Program-made: the position numbers and the translations under genes | Notes under the pieces: model-generated | What the model saw: only the letters and a program-made list of their open reading frames with translations | The model's database searches: none | What the model was told of the DNA's origin: nothing | NCBI RefSeq assembly: GCF_002215035.1 | Contig: NZ_NKFP01000001.1 | Coordinates: 307,501-371,500 of the forward strand | Direction: 5' to 3' | Source: Leptolyngbya ohadii IS1 | GTDB taxonomy: Bacteria; Cyanobacteriota; Cyanobacteriia; Elainellales; Elainellaceae | Length of the DNA stretch: 64,000 nucleotides | Part shown: one piece after another, positions 16,808 through 27,158 of the stretch | How the letters are laid out: each line of letters starts with the position of its first letter | How positions within the stretch are numbered: the first letter of the stretch is position 1

Positions 16808-16990
16808 TTAGTCATCCATCTTGATTTTAATCTCATCAACTCTGACTCCCTTCGCCAAATATTTGCCAATTGCCTCTCCAAGCTGCTGTTCCGGAGTCTT
16901 CGGGGGTTCAGGGGGTTTGGGTTTGGGAAATAGCACTTCCTGCGTCCACGCCAGCACAAGACCTCCCAGGACAAACAAAATCGGTTCCAT
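16808..16990 (-). CDS. Small single-pass membrane protein inside the cas operon
   Basis: 60 aa. An N-terminal hydrophobic segment (residues 4-21, ILFVLGGLVLAWTQEVLF) is followed by a Pro/Lys-rich linker (PKPKPPEPPKTPEQQ) and an amphipathic helix (LGEAIGKYLAKGV, then VDEIKIKMDD). The stop is 2 bp before the cas4 ATG and the gene lies 94 bp downstream of cas6, all on the same strand. The biased composition and tight spacing argue for a real gene. It is not a recognised Cas protein. A membrane anchor or accessory factor for adaptation is conceivable but unproven. Confidence 0.65.
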   Translation of the reverse strand: MEPILFVLGGLVLAWTQEVLFPKPKPPEPPKTPEQQLGEAIGKYLAKGVRVDEIKIKMDD

Positions 16991-19668: not shown

Positions 19669-22600
19669 TTAGCTCTCGACATCCTTCTCAGCGGGCTTCT
19701 CACCATTTGCCTGATTCTCCTTATCGTCCTCGAGGCGATACAAAAACTCGCAGGTATCCCGAATCAGATTGAGCTGCCGACCTGCTAAACGAGCGCGATC
19801 GCCTGCAAAGGCAACTTCAAAAACATCCTTCACGAAATACCGAGCGAAATCTAAAATTATCTGCCGCTCCTCCTCACGCTTGCTGATGACCCATCGCCCT
19901 TCCGCAGTTGAGGCATGAACTCGATCCATGAGCTTAGACACTTCAGCCGCTACAGCCGCCACCAACGTTTCTCCCTGGAAAACTGTGGATTCCGCTTTCA
20001 GGATCGTTTCAGCCGCCACATCGATCGGCTTTAGGACAGCATTGGATTTGGGGTTGTATCGCTTTCCGGCACGGTAGAAACGACGATAAAGCTCTGTTAG
20101 CTTCTGGGGATGGTTTAACGGTGATTCTTCTCCCACAATCAGTACCTCCGAATTGAAATCAAATTGAGTGTATGGGTCAAAGCAGGGATAGAAATGGTAG
20201 GCATAGAGGCGAATTTTCTCAATTCGAGCCGTTTCAACACCCTGATTCCGCACCCAGCGATTTAAGTAGCTGAAAACGTAAAGTGAACTGGTTTCAAAAT
20301 CTTTAGCTAGTTCAGTTAGTCTGCCCCAATTCGCGTCATAGCCGCCCTTACCCTGCTTTGCATTCACGTCGAAGTGAATAGCGTAGGCAGCAGTTAGAAC
20401 ATTGAGAGGGGCTGGCTGTTTCGTGCCATCGGGCGCATTCCAACCGTCCAGAATGTAGTCGAGCCGGAATCGATCGCGTCCCGTAAGAACTCGAAATGCC
20501 TGGGGCGCACTGTCTAGAAAAACGCTCTCCTCAAATTCGGCTCCATCAGTAAAGGGTGGAATTGGAGATTCGGACACTACTGTTTTGACATCCAGAATCA
20601 TTGGAAACGCAAAGGCTAACCAGGCAGGCATAACCCAGGATTCTGTGTCAGTCGGATCTCTTCCGGGTGGCAGTGCCATAAAGTAAAACGTCAGCGGCTG
20701 ATCATCGGGATAGGACAGCTTGAATGTGCGATCGCGCCTATACTGAGGGTCATTCTCAGGAAGCTGTTTCTTACGCTCTAGGTCTTCATCAATGAGGAAC
20801 GCATCAACGGTTTGATAGCGATCGCGCCCTAAGTCTGCCCGCATATCCTTTGTGATGAAATGGTTGCGAACGCTGGTATCAAAACGAGTCTGGGCGATGC
20901 CGCTGTATGCTTTCTGCAAAAATCTGTTGGTTTCAGGCGTGAAATAGTAGGTTGGGTAGAAGTAAAGATAGCGGTACTTGCCATCCTCAAATCGCTTGCC
21001 GACTGCCTGTGTCTGATTCATCAGGATTTGTCGCAGCATCATCTCAATTCCAGCAATGCTTGAAATATTGCGTTTAGCGTTTGATCCTCCTAGATGTTGC
21101 TTATTCGTATAAACCTGGGGCGTAAACAGCACGGCTGATTCCATCTGCTCAGTCACCGTATAGGCAGAGTTTGAAATAGAGCAAATTAGCTGCCGTCCTC
21201 GCCCTGGCTTTTTAGCAGCAGAGTAACCTGCCAATTCTTTCAGGAAAGTATCTACCTGCTCTGTAGCCATTTGATTCTGAATATTTCCAGGAAGCATAAC
21301 AATGCGTTCGACCCAGAGCCGCAAATCATCCCAGCCATCGGGTAACTGATACTGCTCAACCAATGGCTGAATTAAATTAGCAAGATAGGCAACAACTTGA
21401 CTACAAACATCGCGCAGATTTTCAATGCCAGGATGCCGCTCTAAGTATTTTGCTGCTAAGAAATACCACTCGTAGGGTACGCCGCCCGTATTACCCGTTA
21501 ACTTATTTGCTTTGAGGTTTTCATTGATTCTCTGAATCTTCTCAATCTGGGGAGAATGCTCTCCTAATCCCCAGAACTCCGCAACTTTATGGACTAATTG
21601 ATCCGGCAGCAGGTCAAGTGGCTTGAGTTCAGGAAGCTGTTTATTCTTCTTGCGATCGGCTTCGTATCTTTTACGGGCTTCCGCAAGCTGTGCAAATCGC
21701 TCACCCCAGATCTTGCGGCTGACTAAATCACCAAACTCTGCCAATTGGTCAATACGAATATCATCCTCAAATTCAAAACTATAGTTTGCAGGTAGAACGT
21801 TTTGCTGCTGAAACTTGACCAGATTTTGGCTCCGACTCTTTGCAACAGAGCCTTTATTGGGGTTAAGAATTCGTAGGGTTGCATCTAACGCAACTTGCAT
21901 CAAGCCCGGAGCGTCAAAAAACAGGTTGTAATATTCCGCATATTTCATTCCCTTGCCGTCTCGCCCAAAGCCTGTCTGCCGAAGGCGTAACTGTCCTGCA
22001 CAGAGACTTTTGATACTGGCAACAACACGATCGGGCAATTCCTTTGGATCAACTTGAGGTGCATTGCGATCGGCTAAGTAAATTACTCCAGTTGGTAGAT
22101 AAAGCAGCGGTTCATAGTAAATCAGCTCTGAGGTATTCAGGCTTGTATGCGCCTCCATCAAAGCATTATTAACGACATTCGTGAGAACACCCCGGTTTTC
22201 CGCAATACTGTGATAGGTCAACTTAAGCTGTCCGTCGCTAAGGCTATGGATGAGTTCCTTGAGGCGGGGATGCTCTGCGTCTTGAGGATGTTTGACGATC
22301 GAAGCTAAGGAATCTGCCAGACAGGTAAGGTCGGAAAGGCTGCGAAGGACGCGATCTTTGAGCGATGGGTTGAGTCCATATTCTGAAAAATTCCAGTTTG
22401 TGTCCCAGCGGCGTTGGGCGTTATATGCCATGCACAGCAAATCATCAAGATACGCTTTATAGGTTTCAGGATGATTGGGATCAATAAAGCGATCTAACCC
22501 AAGCTGATGAACTTTCTCATCAATAATTTGACGATGCTCCTCCAGGGATAACTTACGACAGTTCTCTGGCGCATCTGGGAATTTTTCAAAGTCATGCAGG

Positions 22601-23043
22601 ATGAAGGCAGCGATAACTAATCGGCGTTCCTGTTCCCGCACGACCCGCTGTACTGTGGTATTGAGCTTCTCCAGACGCTTCTCAATTAGGTTGGCTGGAA
22701 ATAGCCCATTCAGTAAATGAGTGTTGAGGGATTGATCCGCCGCATTATCACGCCGAACTCGGTCTTTTCCTGCGGCTTCTCGCTGCTGATCTAGCTCATC
22801 AAAAAATTTGCCCCCTTTAGCCGTAACCCCGATCGCCATCTTCAGAAGATTGGGCAGCACATACTCTGCGAAGTCCTGCATTACCGCGTCGTCTGGATTT
22901 TGCGATCGAATCGCTTCCCGCAATAGTTTAAGGGTTAACAGCTCTCGTTTGGGAGATTCAACAGTGCGATCGGTGCTGCCTTCATTCAAGCCGAGATCAT
23001 CCTCTAACCAATCAATCTCATCGTTATTAGAAGTCATCGTCAT
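19669..23043 (-). CDS. cas10d: Type I-D large subunit Cas10d (Csc3) with HD nuclease
   Basis: 1124 aa. The HD nuclease motif is in the N-terminal part (AAFILHDFEKF, H150-D151), with another likely ligand at H109 (LNTHLLNGLFPAN). In I-D the HD domain resides on Cas10d rather than on Cas3, which fits the HD-less helicase at 24012-26189. The C-terminal region is diverged and no GGDD palm motif was found. It overlaps the hepT 3' end by 17 bp (11 bp if the second Met is used), so translation of the antiviral large subunit follows directly from hepT. Confidence 0.94.
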   Translation of the reverse strand: MTMTSNNDEIDWLEDDLGLNEGSTDRTVESPKRELLTLKLLREAIRSQNPDDAVMQDFAEYVLPNLLKMAIGVTAKGGKFFDELDQQREAAGKDRVRRDNAADQSLNTHLLNGLFPANLIEKRLEKLNTTVQRVVREQERRLVIAAFILHDFEKFPDAPENCRKLSLEEHRQIIDEKVHQLGLDRFIDPNHPETYKAYLDDLLCMAYNAQRRWDTNWNFSEYGLNPSLKDRVLRSLSDLTCLADSLASIVKHPQDAEHPRLKELIHSLSDGQLKLTYHSIAENRGVLTNVVNNALMEAHTSLNTSELIYYEPLLYLPTGVIYLADRNAPQVDPKELPDRVVASIKSLCAGQLRLRQTGFGRDGKGMKYAEYYNLFFDAPGLMQVALDATLRILNPNKGSVAKSRSQNLVKFQQQNVLPANYSFEFEDDIRIDQLAEFGDLVSRKIWGERFAQLAEARKRYEADRKKNKQLPELKPLDLLPDQLVHKVAEFWGLGEHSPQIEKIQRINENLKANKLTGNTGGVPYEWYFLAAKYLERHPGIENLRDVCSQVVAYLANLIQPLVEQYQLPDGWDDLRLWVERIVMLPGNIQNQMATEQVDTFLKELAGYSAAKKPGRGRQLICSISNSAYTVTEQMESAVLFTPQVYTNKQHLGGSNAKRNISSIAGIEMMLRQILMNQTQAVGKRFEDGKYRYLYFYPTYYFTPETNRFLQKAYSGIAQTRFDTSVRNHFITKDMRADLGRDRYQTVDAFLIDEDLERKKQLPENDPQYRRDRTFKLSYPDDQPLTFYFMALPPGRDPTDTESWVMPAWLAFAFPMILDVKTVVSESPIPPFTDGAEFEESVFLDSAPQAFRVLTGRDRFRLDYILDGWNAPDGTKQPAPLNVLTAAYAIHFDVNAKQGKGGYDANWGRLTELAKDFETSSLYVFSYLNRWVRNQGVETARIEKIRLYAYHFYPCFDPYTQFDFNSEVLIVGEESPLNHPQKLTELYRRFYRAGKRYNPKSNAVLKPIDVAAETILKAESTVFQGETLVAAVAAEVSKLMDRVHASTAEGRWVISKREEERQIILDFARYFVKDVFEVAFAGDRARLAGRQLNLIRDTCEFLYRLEDDKENQANGEKPAEKDVES

Positions 23044-23485
23044 CGTCTGTCTCTAATGAATTCAAGTAATTTTGAATCTGCTGGATATACTGCGTGTACT
23101 GGGTTACGGCAAGCTGCAAAGCGCGATAAGCCATCTCCGGCACAATGTCGTCATAAACATGGGCAAGCACGTTTCTAAAACTAGCTGACGGCACAAGCTG
23201 ATTTGCTAACTCCGAAGTGATAAAGCCTAGCTCACTCGCAAGGGTAAATGTTTCCGCGTTAGTTATCCGGGCGGATTCTACATCCCGTACAGACGAAATC
23301 AGCATTTTGTTAACGTCGATCGCCGCTTGAATGACGACCTCTAGATAACGTTCGATCGTTGCCTGTCGATCCTCATCCTGCAAATATTCCTCAAAACTCA
23401 ATGATTGATACGCTGCTAACCTCGTCAGCCTCCTGTTCAGCCCAATCAGCTTTTTGCCAACTCCTTGCAAATCAAGTTCTGTCAT
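23027..23485 (-). CDS. hepT: HepT-like HEPN ribonuclease toxin (DUF86) in the cas operon
   Basis: 152 aa from the ATG at 23485 (MTELDLQGVGKKLIGLNRRL), which overlaps the mntA stop as ATGA. The HEPN motif R-x4-H-x-Y is intact: RNVLAHVY at residues 104-111. In characterised HEPN-MNT pairs the HEPN protein is an RNase, and the MNT partner silences it by adenylylating the Tyr of this motif. The C-terminus is acidic (ETDDDDDF) because its last codons overlap the start of cas10d. With the 4 bp overlap to mntA, this is a tightly packed pair inside the antiviral operon. Confidence 0.93.
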   Translation of the reverse strand: MTELDLQGVGKKLIGLNRRLTRLAAYQSLSFEEYLQDEDRQATIERYLEVVIQAAIDVNKMLISSVRDVESARITNAETFTLASELGFITSELANQLVPSASFRNVLAHVYDDIVPEMAYRALQLAVTQYTQYIQQIQNYLNSLETDDDDDF

Positions 23486-23928
23486 AGACCCCACTGCTTT
23501 AGCGATGCTGCAATCGTTGCTTTTTGCTCACGGCGAATTTCCTTGAGTTGCTGGGGTGTCATCAAAGCTTTCTGTCGAAATTCTTCAAACAGCCCTGGCT
23601 CGCCTTCATAAATAACCACACCATCACGAGCGATCGCATGAGCCAGTAAATCTGAGGCATCTTTCAAATCAATCCAATCTATCTCGTCATCACCTAAACC
23701 TAGGATTTGCTGCAAAACAACCCAGGAGCGAAAACAGTTCCACCCGCCGCCTAGCTCATGTTGCTTGCGAAGGTTCTCATCGAACAGCAGCGCAAAGTCC
23801 CAATCGCTTGCAGGAGAATGATTCCCTCTTGCCCTGGAACCAAAGAGAACCAACAGCTTCAGATAAGGAACTTGTTCCAGTATTCGAGGAATGGCGGATT
23901 GAAGGTCGGCGATCGTTTGAGGTTTCAT
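23482..23928 (-). CDS. mntA: MntA-like nucleotidyltransferase antitoxin in the cas operon
   Basis: 148 aa. The minimal nucleotidyltransferase motif G-S-x10-D-x-D is exact: G30-S31 to D42 and D44 (LFGSRARG, then SDWDFALL). A third acidic position is likely in DDEIDWIDL (about 80-88). Family members transfer AMP to HEPN partners. The C-terminal third (QQLKEIRREQKATIAASLKQ) is a charged helix that may contact HepT. An 83 bp gap separates it from the cas3' stop; the gap contains AAGGA before the ATG, and a secondary promoter there is possible but not clear. Confidence 0.92.
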   Translation of the reverse strand: MKPQTIADLQSAIPRILEQVPYLKLLVLFGSRARGNHSPASDWDFALLFDENLRKQHELGGGWNCFRSWVVLQQILGLGDDEIDWIDLKDASDLLAHAIARDGVVIYEGEPGLFEEFRQKALMTPQQLKEIRREQKATIAASLKQWGL

Positions 23929-24011
23929 TATCCTTGCCGTTTACCGGAAAGCTCTATAACTAGTTGTCGTAATAATGCCTTAACGTAATTTCTCTTCTGT
24001 ACTTCTTTATT

Positions 24012-26189
24012 TTAGGCAATCCACAGTTCACCTCCGTCACTCCTGAAGTAATAAGCCAGCGTATCCAGCAGCAATGCACTTTGCCCAAAGGTGATGGCGT
24101 AGGGTGCAGTTGCATCGTGAATGCTGTACTGGTCGCTGATTGGGTAAATCTGGAAGTGCATGGGCAATCTGAGCCGCTGCCGGACTTCGCTCACAGGACG
24201 ACGAACCACATAGCTCACCAAGCCTTCCTTTCTGAGCCGCTGGTTAATTGCGCCGACCCATCGGTTGTCCGGCTGCCAAATTTCGATTCCAGTCAACACC
24301 TGCACCTTCCAGGCATCTGCAACGGGCTGTAGATCGCCGGAATAGGTAAACTTCCAATTTAGCCGCTCTTCTCGGTAGGAGCGCAGTTTCATGAATGCGA
24401 GGCAGTGAGCAAACCGCCCTCTGGGAATCGGTTGTCCCAGGCGTTCCTTGGTTTCCTGAAGCGATCGCAAAAAATCTGCCTCCGTCATCATCTCGATCTC
24501 CAGGTTGCCCAAAATTCCTGGCAGATCATAGGTCTTAAATCGATCGACCTCATTGGGTTCCGTCAAATCGTAAAGACCGCACTGCAAGGGGCTGGAGCCT
24601 CGAAAACTCAACGCATCTTCATAGATCGGGTTCCCCTTTCTGCCGGAAAGCTGCTGCCAATCTTCACTCCATCCCCTTACCCGACCTGCAACTTTATTCA
24701 GAGTTGTCTCAAAAACCTGCTCGCAGGCTTGTTTGAATGCTTCTAAGCTGCCTGCGTACTGCTGCTGTATTGTTTGATGGGCAAGCTTACGACCCAGGTA
24801 TAGGGACTGCACTGCGCCCCAGCGACGATAATATCCCCGAAAATCGTTAATCTGCCTGTACTTTTCGTAAATAATGCGGTGGAAAAATGGGCGATCGTAG
24901 GTGTCGTTATTTTTCAGCGGTGCGGCTTCTCCTTCAAACAGTCTTTCCACCAGGAAGTTCGGAACAAGGGCATAGGCAGTAAAATCATCAAACCGAATCT
25001 GCTGCCCATCTTGCTCATAACCGTCATGCCGTCCCAATCGTCCCAGCCGCTGAATAAAGTTTCCGGCATCCGCTGACTCAAAAATTAGAAAGTTAATTTT
25101 GAAATCAACACCTACATCGATCGTGCTGGTGCCCAAAACCAAATCAGCCGTGAGCGATCGTTCTCTTTCCGTTTTCCCAGACAATCCTGTGTTTTCTCCT
25201 ACAGTTAGACCGTAGGGCTGTAGCAGTTGGCGAAAGAATGGAGTTAGCCGCTTAATAGCTGCGATCGAATTCAGGATGATTGCCCCCTTGCTGCCGGGAT
25301 GCCGCTGGAATTGAGCCAAAATAAAATTGCTATTGTTTTGTAGCCATGCCTCGGAGGCTTTTGGGGTAGGCTCCAGTGGTACAAACTTGAGCTGAATACT
25401 TCGTGCTACAGTCCGCCAGTGATTTGTTTGAAGTTCTCGAATCTGCGCTGAGGAATCGGGAAACTGATATTTGCCCTCCAAGTTCGGGTCGATCTGCTGA
25501 TAGCGAATTCCAGCAGCGTCAAGACGTTTAAGAATTTGATCGTTTGGAGTCGCTGAAAGGAAAAGAAACTTCTTGCGCCGATTGGTTGAGCGAATTAACA
25601 GCATCGTGTTGAGAACACTGGCAACCTGAGGAGCATTGAAGACATGAAATTCATCAAAAATGAAGAGATCAAAGTCCTTATCAATTCGCCCCCAAAGCTT
25701 ATCGGGGCTATCCTCAGGCATAAGATACGCGCCCTGATGCAGGTAGTGAAAAATATCTGGGTTTGTGAGCAAAACTTCAGACTGATTCGTACGAGTTGCG
25801 ATCGCCGCCCCTTTTCGTAACCCTTCATTTTCTGCGTAAATTTCTAGTTCTGCCCCGCTTAACCGCGTCACTCTTGGATGATTAGACGGCTGAAACTGCT
25901 CAATATAATTTTTTGTTTGCGCTTCCTGATCACGGGCGAGTTCATTGGTTGGATATAGTCCGATCGCACAACATTCCCCCTGAAGCACCTCCAGGTAAGC
26001 CGCTAGACTCTTTCCATCTCCGGTCATTGCCGCATTAAAAATGACATCAATATCAGGATTTCGCAGTGCCTTGAGCGTTTCAACTTGATGCCAGACTAAT
26101 GACCAGCCTTGAGGCAGGGTAACTCCTGAAGGAATGACATCAGCAGGAGAGGAGTAAACAGGTTTGAGGGTAATGCTGTAATCGGACAT
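24012..26189 (-). CDS. cas3': CRISPR-associated helicase Cas3' (type I-D, without HD domain)
   Basis: 725 aa. Helicase motifs are clear: Walker A AMTGDGKS (54-61), DExH box DEFH (179-182), motif III SAT (212-214) and motif VI QRLGRLGRHDG (about 380-390). No HD domain precedes the helicase, as expected for I-D where Cas10d carries the nuclease. It would unwind target DNA after recognition by the Cascade-like complex. It is the first cas gene of the leftward operon and faces the WYL regulator across a 111 bp shared promoter region. Confidence 0.94.
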   Translation of the reverse strand: MSDYSITLKPVYSSPADVIPSGVTLPQGWSLVWHQVETLKALRNPDIDVIFNAAMTGDGKSLAAYLEVLQGECCAIGLYPTNELARDQEAQTKNYIEQFQPSNHPRVTRLSGAELEIYAENEGLRKGAAIATRTNQSEVLLTNPDIFHYLHQGAYLMPEDSPDKLWGRIDKDFDLFIFDEFHVFNAPQVASVLNTMLLIRSTNRRKKFLFLSATPNDQILKRLDAAGIRYQQIDPNLEGKYQFPDSSAQIRELQTNHWRTVARSIQLKFVPLEPTPKASEAWLQNNSNFILAQFQRHPGSKGAIILNSIAAIKRLTPFFRQLLQPYGLTVGENTGLSGKTERERSLTADLVLGTSTIDVGVDFKINFLIFESADAGNFIQRLGRLGRHDGYEQDGQQIRFDDFTAYALVPNFLVERLFEGEAAPLKNNDTYDRPFFHRIIYEKYRQINDFRGYYRRWGAVQSLYLGRKLAHQTIQQQYAGSLEAFKQACEQVFETTLNKVAGRVRGWSEDWQQLSGRKGNPIYEDALSFRGSSPLQCGLYDLTEPNEVDRFKTYDLPGILGNLEIEMMTEADFLRSLQETKERLGQPIPRGRFAHCLAFMKLRSYREERLNWKFTYSGDLQPVADAWKVQVLTGIEIWQPDNRWVGAINQRLRKEGLVSYVVRRPVSEVRQRLRLPMHFQIYPISDQYSIHDATAPYAITFGQSALLLDTLAYYFRSDGGELWIA

Positions 26190-26300
26190 AGAGTTAAATT
26201 TGTGTCCGTAACTTGTTGCTTGAACCGATCATGGCACAGAGAATAGGGATAGACAAGAGGTGTACGGCAATCAGTGTACGGACACTTTTAGGAGGTTCCC
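26190..26300. promoter_or_regulatory. Divergent cas operon / WYL regulator control region
   Basis: GTGTCCGTA (26202-26210) and TACGGACAC (26277-26285) form a perfect 9 bp inverted repeat. GTGTACGG occurs twice with a 14 bp period (26260-26267 and 26274-26281). AGGAGG (26290-26295) is the ribosome site of the WYL gene. The layout suggests an operator read by the adjacent regulator, possibly looping across both promoters. Confidence 0.6.
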
Positions 26301-27158
26301 ATGACTCGCAAAGGACGATCGATTACCCTGTCCCTCGAAGAGAGCGACAAATCACAGCTCGAAGCCATTGCCCTGGAGTTGGGCATGATGTGGGGGGATG
26401 AACCTAATATTTCGCGGCTGATCAAGGCGATCGCCCGTCGCCATCTGACAGTGTTCCCCAATAATGATTGGAGTCGCGATCGCATCAATACCCTGAATAA
26501 GGCGAGAAATTTATTAGTCGATGGTGGTTATCTCGAAGATGCGTTAGTGTTGGCGCACCTGCTGTTAGAGCGGAGTGAATTGACTCTGCCCCTGCGTCAG
26601 GAACTTGAACAGTTTGTGGCGAAACCTGCGGCACCCTGGCGAATGGAAATCGATCGCTACATACGGCAGCAGCAGCCCTTTCAATTAGCCTATCAAGACG
26701 CCGCTGAGCGAGTCTGGAACTTCACCATATCTTTTGCGATCGTCGCCCAGCATGAAGAACGGCAATATCTGGACTGCTGGTGTCGCGAAACGGAGGGCAA
26801 TCAGGATTTATCGGCGCTGGCTCATAACTGGTCGCTGCGAATCGATCGGATTGCGGATGCGGCGGTGTCGCCTGTGAAAGGTCGCTGGCAGGGCGGGCTG
26901 GACTCCATTGCAGTTGAGATGCACTTGCTGCGCGGGCTGGCGTTTGCCTATCGCACAAAAAACGGTGCGGACGAGGTGAACGAATGGCATCCTAATCTGC
27001 CTCAGGTGCGGCGGGTGGTGCGGCGCGTTGCCAATACCTTCTGGTTCTTTCGCGAAATTCGGCGGTACGGCAAGGACTGTATTATTGTGTCTCCGGAAGA
27101 CGTGCGCGATCGGTTTAAGCAGGAACTTTTAGAGATGGTTGAACAGTATGATCCTTAA
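26301..27158 (+). CDS. WYL-domain transcriptional regulator of the CRISPR locus
   Basis: 285 aa. The N-terminal 50 residues (RSITLSLEESDKSQLEAIAL, then NISRLIKAIARRHL) look like a ribbon-helix-helix/HTH DNA-binding module. The middle (QPFQLAYQDAAERVWNFTIS, then QYLDCWCRE) is a WYL-type fold with the signature residues changed. WYL proteins commonly bind a nucleic-acid ligand and repress or activate defence genes; a WYL protein (Sll7009) has been reported as a regulator of a I-D locus in Synechocystis 6803. The divergent position and the nearby inverted repeats support control of cas3' and of itself. Confidence 0.82.
   Translation: MTRKGRSITLSLEESDKSQLEAIALELGMMWGDEPNISRLIKAIARRHLTVFPNNDWSRDRINTLNKARNLLVDGGYLEDALVLAHLLLERSELTLPLRQELEQFVAKPAAPWRMEIDRYIRQQQPFQLAYQDAAERVWNFTISFAIVAQHEERQYLDCWCRETEGNQDLSALAHNWSLRIDRIADAAVSPVKGRWQGGLDSIAVEMHLLRGLAFAYRTKNGADEVNEWHPNLPQVRRVVRRVANTFWFFREIRRYGKDCIIVSPEDVRDRFKQELLEMVEQYDP

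What the first reader, a model, noticed from the sequence alone, without database searches (positions are those of the whole stretch)
23027..23928. HepT/MntA toxin-antitoxin pair embedded in the type I-D cas operon
The HEPN motif R-x4-H-x-Y (RNVLAHVY) and the MNT motif G-S-x10-D-x-D are both intact. mntA-hepT overlap by ATGA, and hepT overlaps the cas10d start by 11-17 bp, so translation of the nuclease subunit depends on the TA pair. This could make immunity failure trigger the RNase. I recall that a HEPN-MNT pair beside a I-D locus in Aphanizomenon has been studied, so the association is not wholly new; the translational coupling to cas10d deserves attention.
Basis: partly seen in the sequence, partly recalled or inferred. 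Interest (0 to 1): 0.78.

Follow-up and report, generated by a model that had tools for sequence, protein, structure and literature searches.

The report
RNase toxin-antitoxin pair inside CRISPR operon
A bacterial RNA-cutting toxin and the enzyme that disarms it sit inside a cyanobacterial CRISPR immunity operon, at a spot where related operons often carry this pair or another nuclease module, which suggests a backup shut-down device that travels with this kind of immunity.

Summary
mntA (23482-23928) and hepT (23027-23485) lie between cas3' and cas10d of a type I-D operon, both catalytic motifs are intact and the overlaps are as stated. The nearest solved relatives are the HEPN and MNT of PDB 7AE2 (Aphanizomenon, recalled); a review places the Aphanizomenon pair beside a I-D locus. 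So this is a new member of a known kind.

Three wider results: (1) in 386 cyanobacterial genomes, 24 of 26 members of this HepT clade lie in I-D-type cas loci, at several positions. (2) The cas3'-cas10d slot is exchangeable: of 43 canonical loci, 14 hold intact MntA-HepT, 5 its remnants, 9 YhcG, 3 DUF433-DUF5615, 1 a DUF5615 fragment, 1 XisHI, 10 none of these. (3) Three full-length HepT lack MntA; all three have lost catalytic Arg and His, yet their frames stay open.

hepT-cas10d overlap is common (31 of 38 loci) but neither universal nor HepT-specific, and cas10d survives toxin decay. That immunity failure triggers the RNase through translational coupling is therefore not supported. Most likely it is an ATP-gated backup RNase made together with Cas10d; toxicity, AMPylation and trigger were not tested.

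The parts
23482..23928 (-). mntA, MNT-domain adenylyltransferase antitoxin, 148 aa, GSX10DXD intact
   Evidence: PDB 7ae2_B 1e-29
23027..23485 (-). hepT, HEPN RNase toxin, 152 aa, RX4HXY intact (R104, H109, Y111)
   Evidence: PDB 7ae9_A 3e-24
23482..23485 (-). ATGA overlap of mntA stop and hepT start
   Evidence: sequence
23027..23043 (-). 17-bp overlap of the hepT end with the cas10d start (11 bp from the second ATG at 23037)
   Evidence: sequence
19669..23043 (-). cas10d/csc3, large subunit with N-terminal HD nuclease domain; no GGDD
   Evidence: TIGR03174 1099 bits; HD context and GGDD check
24012..26189 (-). cas3' helicase of type I-D
   Evidence: TIGR03158 402 bits
18620..19660 (-). csc2/cas7d
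   Evidence: TIGR03157
17916..18623 (-). csc1/cas5d
   Evidence: TIGR03159
17085..17915 (-). cas6
   Evidence: TIGR01877
16194..16805 (-). cas4
   Evidence: TIGR00372
15085..16158 (-). cas1
   Evidence: PF01867 316 bits
14807..15079 (-). cas2
   Evidence: PF09827 97 bits
14167..14562 (.). CRISPR array with six repeats
   Evidence: in the window the repeat core matches only these six places at up to 3 mismatches
26301..27158 (+). divergent regulator with a WCX domain, WYL-type by comparison with I-D regulators
   Evidence: PF25583; WYL label from PMC10212523 passages

Best explanation
A type VII (HepT/MntA) toxin-antitoxin pair that has become a recurrent, exchangeable accessory of cyanobacterial type I-D loci. 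mntA, hepT and cas10d probably share one message with overlapping ends, so antitoxin, toxin and nuclease subunit are made together. MntA uses ATP to put AMP on Tyr111 of each new HepT and keeps its RNase off. When a phage outruns the CRISPR complex and drains ATP or stops normal synthesis, new HepT stays unmodified, cuts tRNA and halts growth: a backup behind Cascade. Shown here: gene identity, motifs, operon geometry, recurrence in I-D loci, loss of the HepT active site in the loci that lack MntA. Taken from published work on the Aphanizomenon system, seen second-hand: di-AMPylation, tRNA 3'-end cleavage, the ATP-sensor proposal. Inferred: co-transcription in this host, and phage infection as the trigger.
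For: Motifs and families; closest solved structures are the 7AE2-series HEPN and MNT. 24 of 26 clear clade members in 386 cyanobacterial genomes lie in I-D-type loci; the 20 best matches of an independent NCBI model in the 62 Cas10d-positive genomes all do. Nearly identical HepT occur in different I-D variants and positions. Three of three full-length HepT without MntA lost both R and H, as expected if HepT is toxic and MntA protects. No GGDD in 63 Cas10d, so a cyclic-oligoadenylate route is unlikely. HepT distances follow MntA (r 0.951) more closely than Cas10d (0.795) (31 loci).
Against: No toxicity, AMPylation or infection data for this locus. The pair is missing from most canonical loci and decays often (5 remnants against 14 intact). 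Six of 60 distinct cyanobacterial loci show no I-D genes in the stretch held. The three dead HepT form one clade, so they may be a single event. The profile behind the 24 of 26 was built from I-D members. The slot also takes unrelated modules, so the chemistry of HepT is not what is conserved.
Confidence: 0.45

Rival explanations
1. Addiction module: the TA pair stabilises the costly I-D operon or the element that carries it. Cells that lose the operon keep toxin but stop making antitoxin. Any TA module will do, hence the exchangeable slot.
For: Unrelated TA-like modules in the same slot; the pair moves between I-D variants; several loci are on plasmids; CreTA is a published precedent for toxins guarding CRISPR loci (PMC12737573, passages).
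Against: Covalently modified HepT would stay harmless after gene loss, so killing on loss should be weak (inference). Toxin loss with cas genes kept is frequent (L039, L040, L049, L064, L070). L105 kept the pair while the effector genes were lost.
Confidence: 0.25
2. Neutral passenger: a mobile TA pair and other modules pile up in defence loci, and an intergenic slot in a long operon simply tolerates them; no joint function with type I-D.
For: Other modules and remnants of modules in the slot; 10 of 43 loci have none of those sought; 6 of 60 clade members stand outside I-D loci.
Against: 24 of 26 members of the clade in I-D-type loci is far from random placement; several positions and variants; strong constraint on intact hepT (omega mostly 0.04-0.30); overlaps kept in 31 of 38 loci.
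Confidence: 0.2
3. One reading: translation of cas10d depends on hepT, and failure of immunity releases the RNase.
For: Overlap in 31 of 38 loci. The catalytically dead hepT frames stay open (about 10.8 stops expected under neutral drift, none present), which would fit a need to translate through them.
Against: 7 of 38 have no overlap; hepT is broken upstream of full-length cas10d in L040 and L064; cas10d stands without hepT in more than half of the canonical loci; DUF5615 overlaps cas10d in the same way in L073 and L075. Dead hepT has omega 0.29-0.47, so the protein too is constrained. Ribosome-site strength is alike with and without hepT.
Confidence: 0.08

Closest known systems
HEPN-MNT TA of Aphanizomenon flos-aquae (Songailiene et al. 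2020, Mol Cell; PDB 7AE2, 7AE6, 7AE8, 7AE9; organism of these entries recalled; paper not held)
   Same: Closest solved relatives of both proteins; also described as beside a I-D CRISPR-Cas system (review passage); same catalytic motifs; the window's Y111 aligns with position 109 of the chain.
   Different: Its exact gene junctions with cas10d were not seen. In this window the pair sits 83 bp after cas3' with no other slot module, and overlaps cas10d by 17 or 11 bp.
HepT/MntA of Shewanella oneidensis (Yao et al. 2020, PMC7641770, passages read; PDB 5YEP and 6M6U series)
   Same: RX4HXY toxin, GSX10DXD antitoxin, antitoxin gene upstream; AMP added to the RX4HXY tyrosine.
   Different: Distant in sequence (MntA 7e-6 by phmmer; HepT found only with the profile, 2e-15); no occurrence of 'CRISPR' in that paper.
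CreTA and related CRISPR-controlled toxins (PMC12737573, passages)
   Same: A toxin-antitoxin unit inside a CRISPR-Cas locus, proposed to guard it.
   Different: There the antitoxin is a crRNA-like RNA acting with Cascade; here it is a protein enzyme, and no repeat-like sequence was found by the pair.
Cmr1-MntA fusion chain (PDB 9Z7Q, 9Z7V, 9Z7X)
   Same: By its chain name, an MntA domain tied to a CRISPR effector subunit.
   Different: The name points to a Cmr (type III) complex; 30 to 42 residues match; no paper on it was found.

Membership tests
Type VII toxin-antitoxin, HepT/MntA | HEPN toxin of the PF01934 family with RX4HXY | tested here: met
   PF01934 71 bits, NF047751 87.9 bits over cut-off; RNVLAHVY
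Type VII toxin-antitoxin, HepT/MntA | Upstream MNT antitoxin with GSX10DXD | tested here: met
   NF047752 85.4 bits over cut-off; GSRARGNHSPASDWD
Type VII toxin-antitoxin, HepT/MntA | HepT is a toxic RNase neutralised by MntA through AMPylation of the tyrosine | not testable with these tools
   Indirect only: 3 of 3 full-length HepT without MntA lost R and H
Type I-D CRISPR-Cas locus | cas3', cas10d with HD domain, csc2, csc1, cas6, cas4, cas1, cas2 and array | tested here: met
Orthology with the I-D-linked HEPN-MNT clade of cyanobacteria | HepT groups with HepT of other I-D loci rather than with non-cyanobacterial HepT | tested here: met
   Tree of 66 rows (quick method): sister to L203 (72% identity) inside a starred set of I-D members, which however also takes in two haloarchaeal rows on a branch of length 2.77 that I do not trust
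CreTA-like CRISPR-regulated toxin | crRNA-like antitoxin with repeat-like sequence near the toxin | tested here: not met
   Repeat core with up to 3 (23-mer) or 2 (14-mer) mismatches occurs only in the array within the window
Cyclic-oligoadenylate-activated ancillary RNase | Cas10 with GGDD that makes the signal | tested here: not met
   GGDD or GGDE in 0 of 63 canonical Cas10d

The most novel reading that the evidence does not exclude
Cyanobacterial type I-D operons carry a dedicated toxin slot between cas3' and cas10d, filled by interchangeable nuclease modules (HepT RNase, PIN-like DUF5615, YhcG, XisH), often tied to the cas10d start by overlapping reading frames. The slot would be a built-in second line of defence, and the catalytically dead HepT that stays under selection would be a domesticated part of the I-D system.
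Probability: 0.3. Interest if true: 0.72.

Novelty: new member of a known kind. Interest (0 to 1): 0.48.

Why it matters
Which toxin-antitoxin systems are truly wired to CRISPR immunity, and which merely sit beside it, is an open question. Here a toxin family with a characterised relative recurs inside one CRISPR subtype, shares a slot with unrelated nuclease modules, and leaves natural knock-outs (truncated toxins, antitoxin-less dead toxins, a locus without effector genes). These are ready-made comparisons for asking whether I-D loci carry a backup shut-down layer although their Cas10d lacks the GGDD motif of the cyclic-oligoadenylate route.

Tried and rejected
Translational coupling as the core of the mechanism: rejected as general, because overlap is missing in 7 of 38 loci and the slot is empty or holds other modules elsewhere. 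Lack of a ribosome-binding site as evidence for coupling: not supported; pairing to the anti-Shine-Dalgarno is alike with hepT (35 loci, median -2.9 kcal/mol, 6 at or below -4.4) and without (30 loci, median -2.85, 10 at or below -4.4) (the 65 include loci with uncertain cas10d starts and two loci with broken genes, L164 and L178).

Cyclic-oligoadenylate control: unlikely, no GGDD in 63 canonical Cas10d. CreA-like guide control: no repeat-like sequence near the pair. Promoter scan over 22900-26400: no promoter-like site, against 4.2 expected by chance, so it says little. A link between TA presence and cas10d integrity looked possible (decayed cas10d in G121, G385 and G056 without this HepT), but numbers are small and L164 shows both broken.

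Exclusivity of the clade to I-D: rejected as absolute. G131, G187, L150, L155, L159 and L168 show no I-D genes in the stretch held, some on short contigs. Of seven haloarchaeal plasmid hits two were looked at and stand apart from cas genes.

Rows dropped before counts: G007 (49 bits) from the 26; five duplicate rows (L140, L141, L146, L166, L189) from the 43 junction rows; the six loci that repeat a genome of the first set (those five and L163), confirmed by identical hepT DNA, from the 60; broken or duplicate HepT (L040, L064, L164, L178 and the duplicates) and all but ten non-cyanobacterial rows from the tree; broken or orphan HepT from the distance test. Corrected on checking: the slot census gave 11 loci with none of the modules; one search showed a DUF5615-like fragment (21.5 bits) just before cas10d in L058, so 10. 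L052, counted among the 10, has a YhcG gene just upstream of cas3'.

Full report
WHAT IS THERE. The reading frames, motifs and overlaps of the finding are all present. The order on the minus strand is cas3', 83 bp, mntA, ATGA overlap, hepT, 17-bp (or 11-bp) overlap, cas10d, csc2, csc1, cas6, cas4, cas1, cas2 and a short array of six repeats; a WCX-domain (WYL-type) regulator diverges upstream of cas3'. In its own genome (7.9 Mb, 8 contigs) the profiles find one HepT and one clear MntA of this clade; one other HepT-like gene lies on contig C6. A second, divergent Cas10d locus on contig C2 has no such pair in the 15 kb examined (L078).

WHAT IT IS. HepT and MntA pass the curated NCBIfam cut-offs for the type VII toxin and antitoxin. 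The nearest solved structures are the HEPN toxin and MNT antitoxin of 7AE2, 7AE6, 7AE8 and 7AE9, which I recall to be the Aphanizomenon flos-aquae pair of Songailiene et al. 2020. That paper is not held. A review passage states that this system lies adjacent to a I-D CRISPR-Cas system, cleaves four nucleotides from tRNA 3' ends, is inactivated by di-AMPylation and was proposed as an ATP sensor (PMC11676413, passages). In the alignment the window's Y111 matches position 109 of the chain.

HOW OFTEN IT GOES WITH TYPE I-D. Of 386 cyanobacterial genomes, 62 have a Cas10d match. In those 62, the 20 best single-stretch matches to the NCBI HepT model (78 to 118 bits) all lie in loci with I-D cas genes. 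At least 14 further hits pass that model's cut-off only when stretches are summed, and lie elsewhere by their coordinates (its list is cut off). With a profile of the I-D HepT, 27 of the 386 genomes match at 1e-10 or better. One (G007, 49 bits) was set aside. Of the other 26, 24 lie among I-D-type cas genes (G119 rests on a WYL, a weak Cas3d and a Cas6 match; G235 holds only a HepT fragment) and two do not (G131, G187). In the larger named collection 179 stretches encoded a relative and the best 80 were kept: 35 are cyanobacterial, of which 31 show I-D genes in the stretch held, and 45 are not, of which none does with models built from cyanobacterial Cas proteins (several contigs are short). 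Six of the 35 repeat genomes of the first set. With five cyanobacterial plasmid loci this makes 60 distinct cyanobacterial loci, 54 of them in I-D-type surroundings. The profile and the pattern search were built from I-D members, so these shares lean towards I-D; the NCBI model was not built by me.

WHERE IN THE OPERON. Most pairs lie between cas3' and cas10d. Others lie between cas3' and cas6 (L100, L152, L165, L196); upstream of the large-subunit gene of a variant I-D locus (annotated csc3 in L101; inferred from a 2.7-4.5 kb interval before csc2 in L098, L099, L134, L135); between csc2 and csc1 with a 4-bp overlap to csc1 (L169); between csc1 and cas6 (L178, broken HepT); and upstream of a variant cas3' (L092). 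In the HepT tree (66 rows, quick method, SH-aLRT only) near-identical HepT occur in different positions and variants (L043, L046, L104 and L142 before cas10d; L098 and L134 before a variant large subunit; L092 before cas3'), and 16 changes of position label, 'no cas' included, are needed among the 56 cyanobacterial rows. Two haloarchaeal rows join the window's group by a branch of length 2.77, which I do not trust. HepT distances follow MntA (r 0.951) better than Cas10d (0.795), while Cas10d follows Csc2 at 0.855 (31 loci). So the pair moves as a unit, or effector cassettes are exchanged around it.

THE SLOT IS EXCHANGEABLE. In the 43 canonical loci of the 386-genome sample the cas3'-cas10d interval holds: intact MntA-HepT, 14 (four of them with other modules or module fragments, L041, L042, L048 and the fused L057); remnants of the pair, 5 (L039, L040, L049, L064, L070); YhcG/DUF1016 without the pair, 9 (L036 and L044 shortened; three with DUF433, one of these with DUF5615 too); DUF433 plus PIN-like DUF5615, 3; a DUF5615-like fragment, 1 (L058, weak); XisH plus XisI, 1; none of these, 10. 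Example proteins were named by Pfam and the rest found by sequence search with those examples, which can miss distant members. DUF5615 overlaps cas10d by 4 bp in L073 and L075. In L057 and L197 a DUF433 domain is fused to MntA. I call these modules TA-like from recalled knowledge of the families; DUF433 with PIN-domain partners is listed as TA in Synechocystis (PMC4963859, passages).

A NATURAL TEST OF TOXICITY. Among the cyanobacterial loci, the full-length HepT with an MntA in the same locus all keep RX4HXY. MntA copies without the GSX10DXD pattern are the truncated one of L093 and one of two copies each in L183 and L138. Three full-length HepT have no MntA: G042, G103 and Anabaena sp. 90 (L039, L049, L106), each behind a YhcG gene. 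All three have lost both R and H. They form one clade, so this may be a single event. Their frames are open: neutral drift at their synonymous divergence would give about 10.8 stops, and 0 of 4000 simulations gave none (substitutions only). Their pairwise omega is 0.29, 0.47 and 0.47; among nine intact genes it is 0.04 to 0.30 except for two pairs (0.37, 0.52) and one undefined, with synonymous sites near saturation in several. The dead protein is thus still constrained, for reasons unknown. Elsewhere HepT is broken or missing with MntA kept (L040, L064, L164, L178, and L093, whose partial MntA runs straight into a variant cas3'). No full-length motif-bearing HepT without MntA was seen among these cyanobacterial loci. 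This is what a real toxin with a real antitoxin predicts.

THE JUNCTION. Of 38 distinct loci with HepT or a remnant upstream of canonical cas10d, 31 overlap by 8 to 23 bp, most often by 8 bp as ATGNNTAA (L162 counted from an inner in-frame ATG; L144 and L145 start 9 bp earlier by the longest frame). Seven do not overlap: gaps of 4, 4, 23, 51 and 59 bp, and about 1 kb in L048 (YhcG between) and L161. The overlap is common but not obligatory, and ribosome-binding signals do not differ between loci with and without hepT.

MECHANISM. I favour an ATP-gated backup RNase made together with Cas10d. The gating chemistry comes from the literature on relatives, the co-production from the gene layout, and the link to phage escape is inference. 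Covalent neutralisation argues against simple killing on gene loss. L105 (Kovacikia minuta plasmid) keeps motif-intact mntA-hepT with cas6, cas4 and cas1 but no effector genes in the 18 kb held, no Csc2 match on the plasmid and only a partial Cas10d about 0.5 Mb away (its chromosome was not searched). This speaks against a toxin that is released whenever the local effector is missing.

NOVELTY. The pair beside I-D is published. My searches for print on the wider pattern (open-licence papers only) found the Aphanizomenon case, general HEPN-MNT papers, two I-D or cyanobacterial CRISPR reviews in which the word 'toxin' does not occur (PMC10212523, PMC11903412), and a TA-CRISPR review in which 'I-D' does not occur (PMC12737573). 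Most subscription papers, including the 2020 original, could not be searched, so I do not claim that the slot is unreported.

Noticed in passing
L039 7154-7591, L049 7154-7579, L106 4076-4513: HepT without MntA and without the catalytic Arg and His, but with an open and constrained frame directly before cas10d and behind a YhcG gene; what the dead protein does is unknown.
   Followed up: partly
L038 6378-6707, L067 6214-6510, L052 7319-7591, L066 4675-4905, L069 7289-7537 (oriented with cas10d forward): Small frames of about 75-110 aa between cas3' and the slot modules, several ending in a shared motif like PYSxDGxAxCN; no Pfam match for the one tested (L038).
   Followed up: partly
L057 6519-7202 and L197 9333-10007: Antitoxin fusion: DUF433, usually paired with PIN-like DUF5615, fused to the N-terminus of MntA.
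   Followed up: partly
L183 8630-10423, L063, L138: Tandem copies of mntA or mntA-hepT in the slot, some antitoxin copies without the GSX10DXD pattern.
   Followed up: no
L105 (Kovacikia minuta plasmid pA): mntA-hepT with cas6, cas4 and cas1 but without effector genes nearby; a patatin-like or other gene pair stands between the regulator and mntA (label by eye).
   Followed up: partly
own genome, contig C2 60737-75514 (L078), outside the window: A second, divergent type I-D-like locus in the same genome, without MntA-HepT.
   Followed up: no
window 16808-16990 (-): A 60-aa frame between cas6 and cas4 with no NCBIfam match.
   Followed up: no
PDB 9Z7Q, 9Z7V, 9Z7X: Chains named Cmr1-MntA match the MntA profile, which hints at another CRISPR type with an MntA tied to its effector; no paper found.
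   Followed up: partly
L052 3812-4837: A YhcG gene just upstream of cas3' with a 4-bp overlap, so that this module too is not bound to one place.
   Followed up: no
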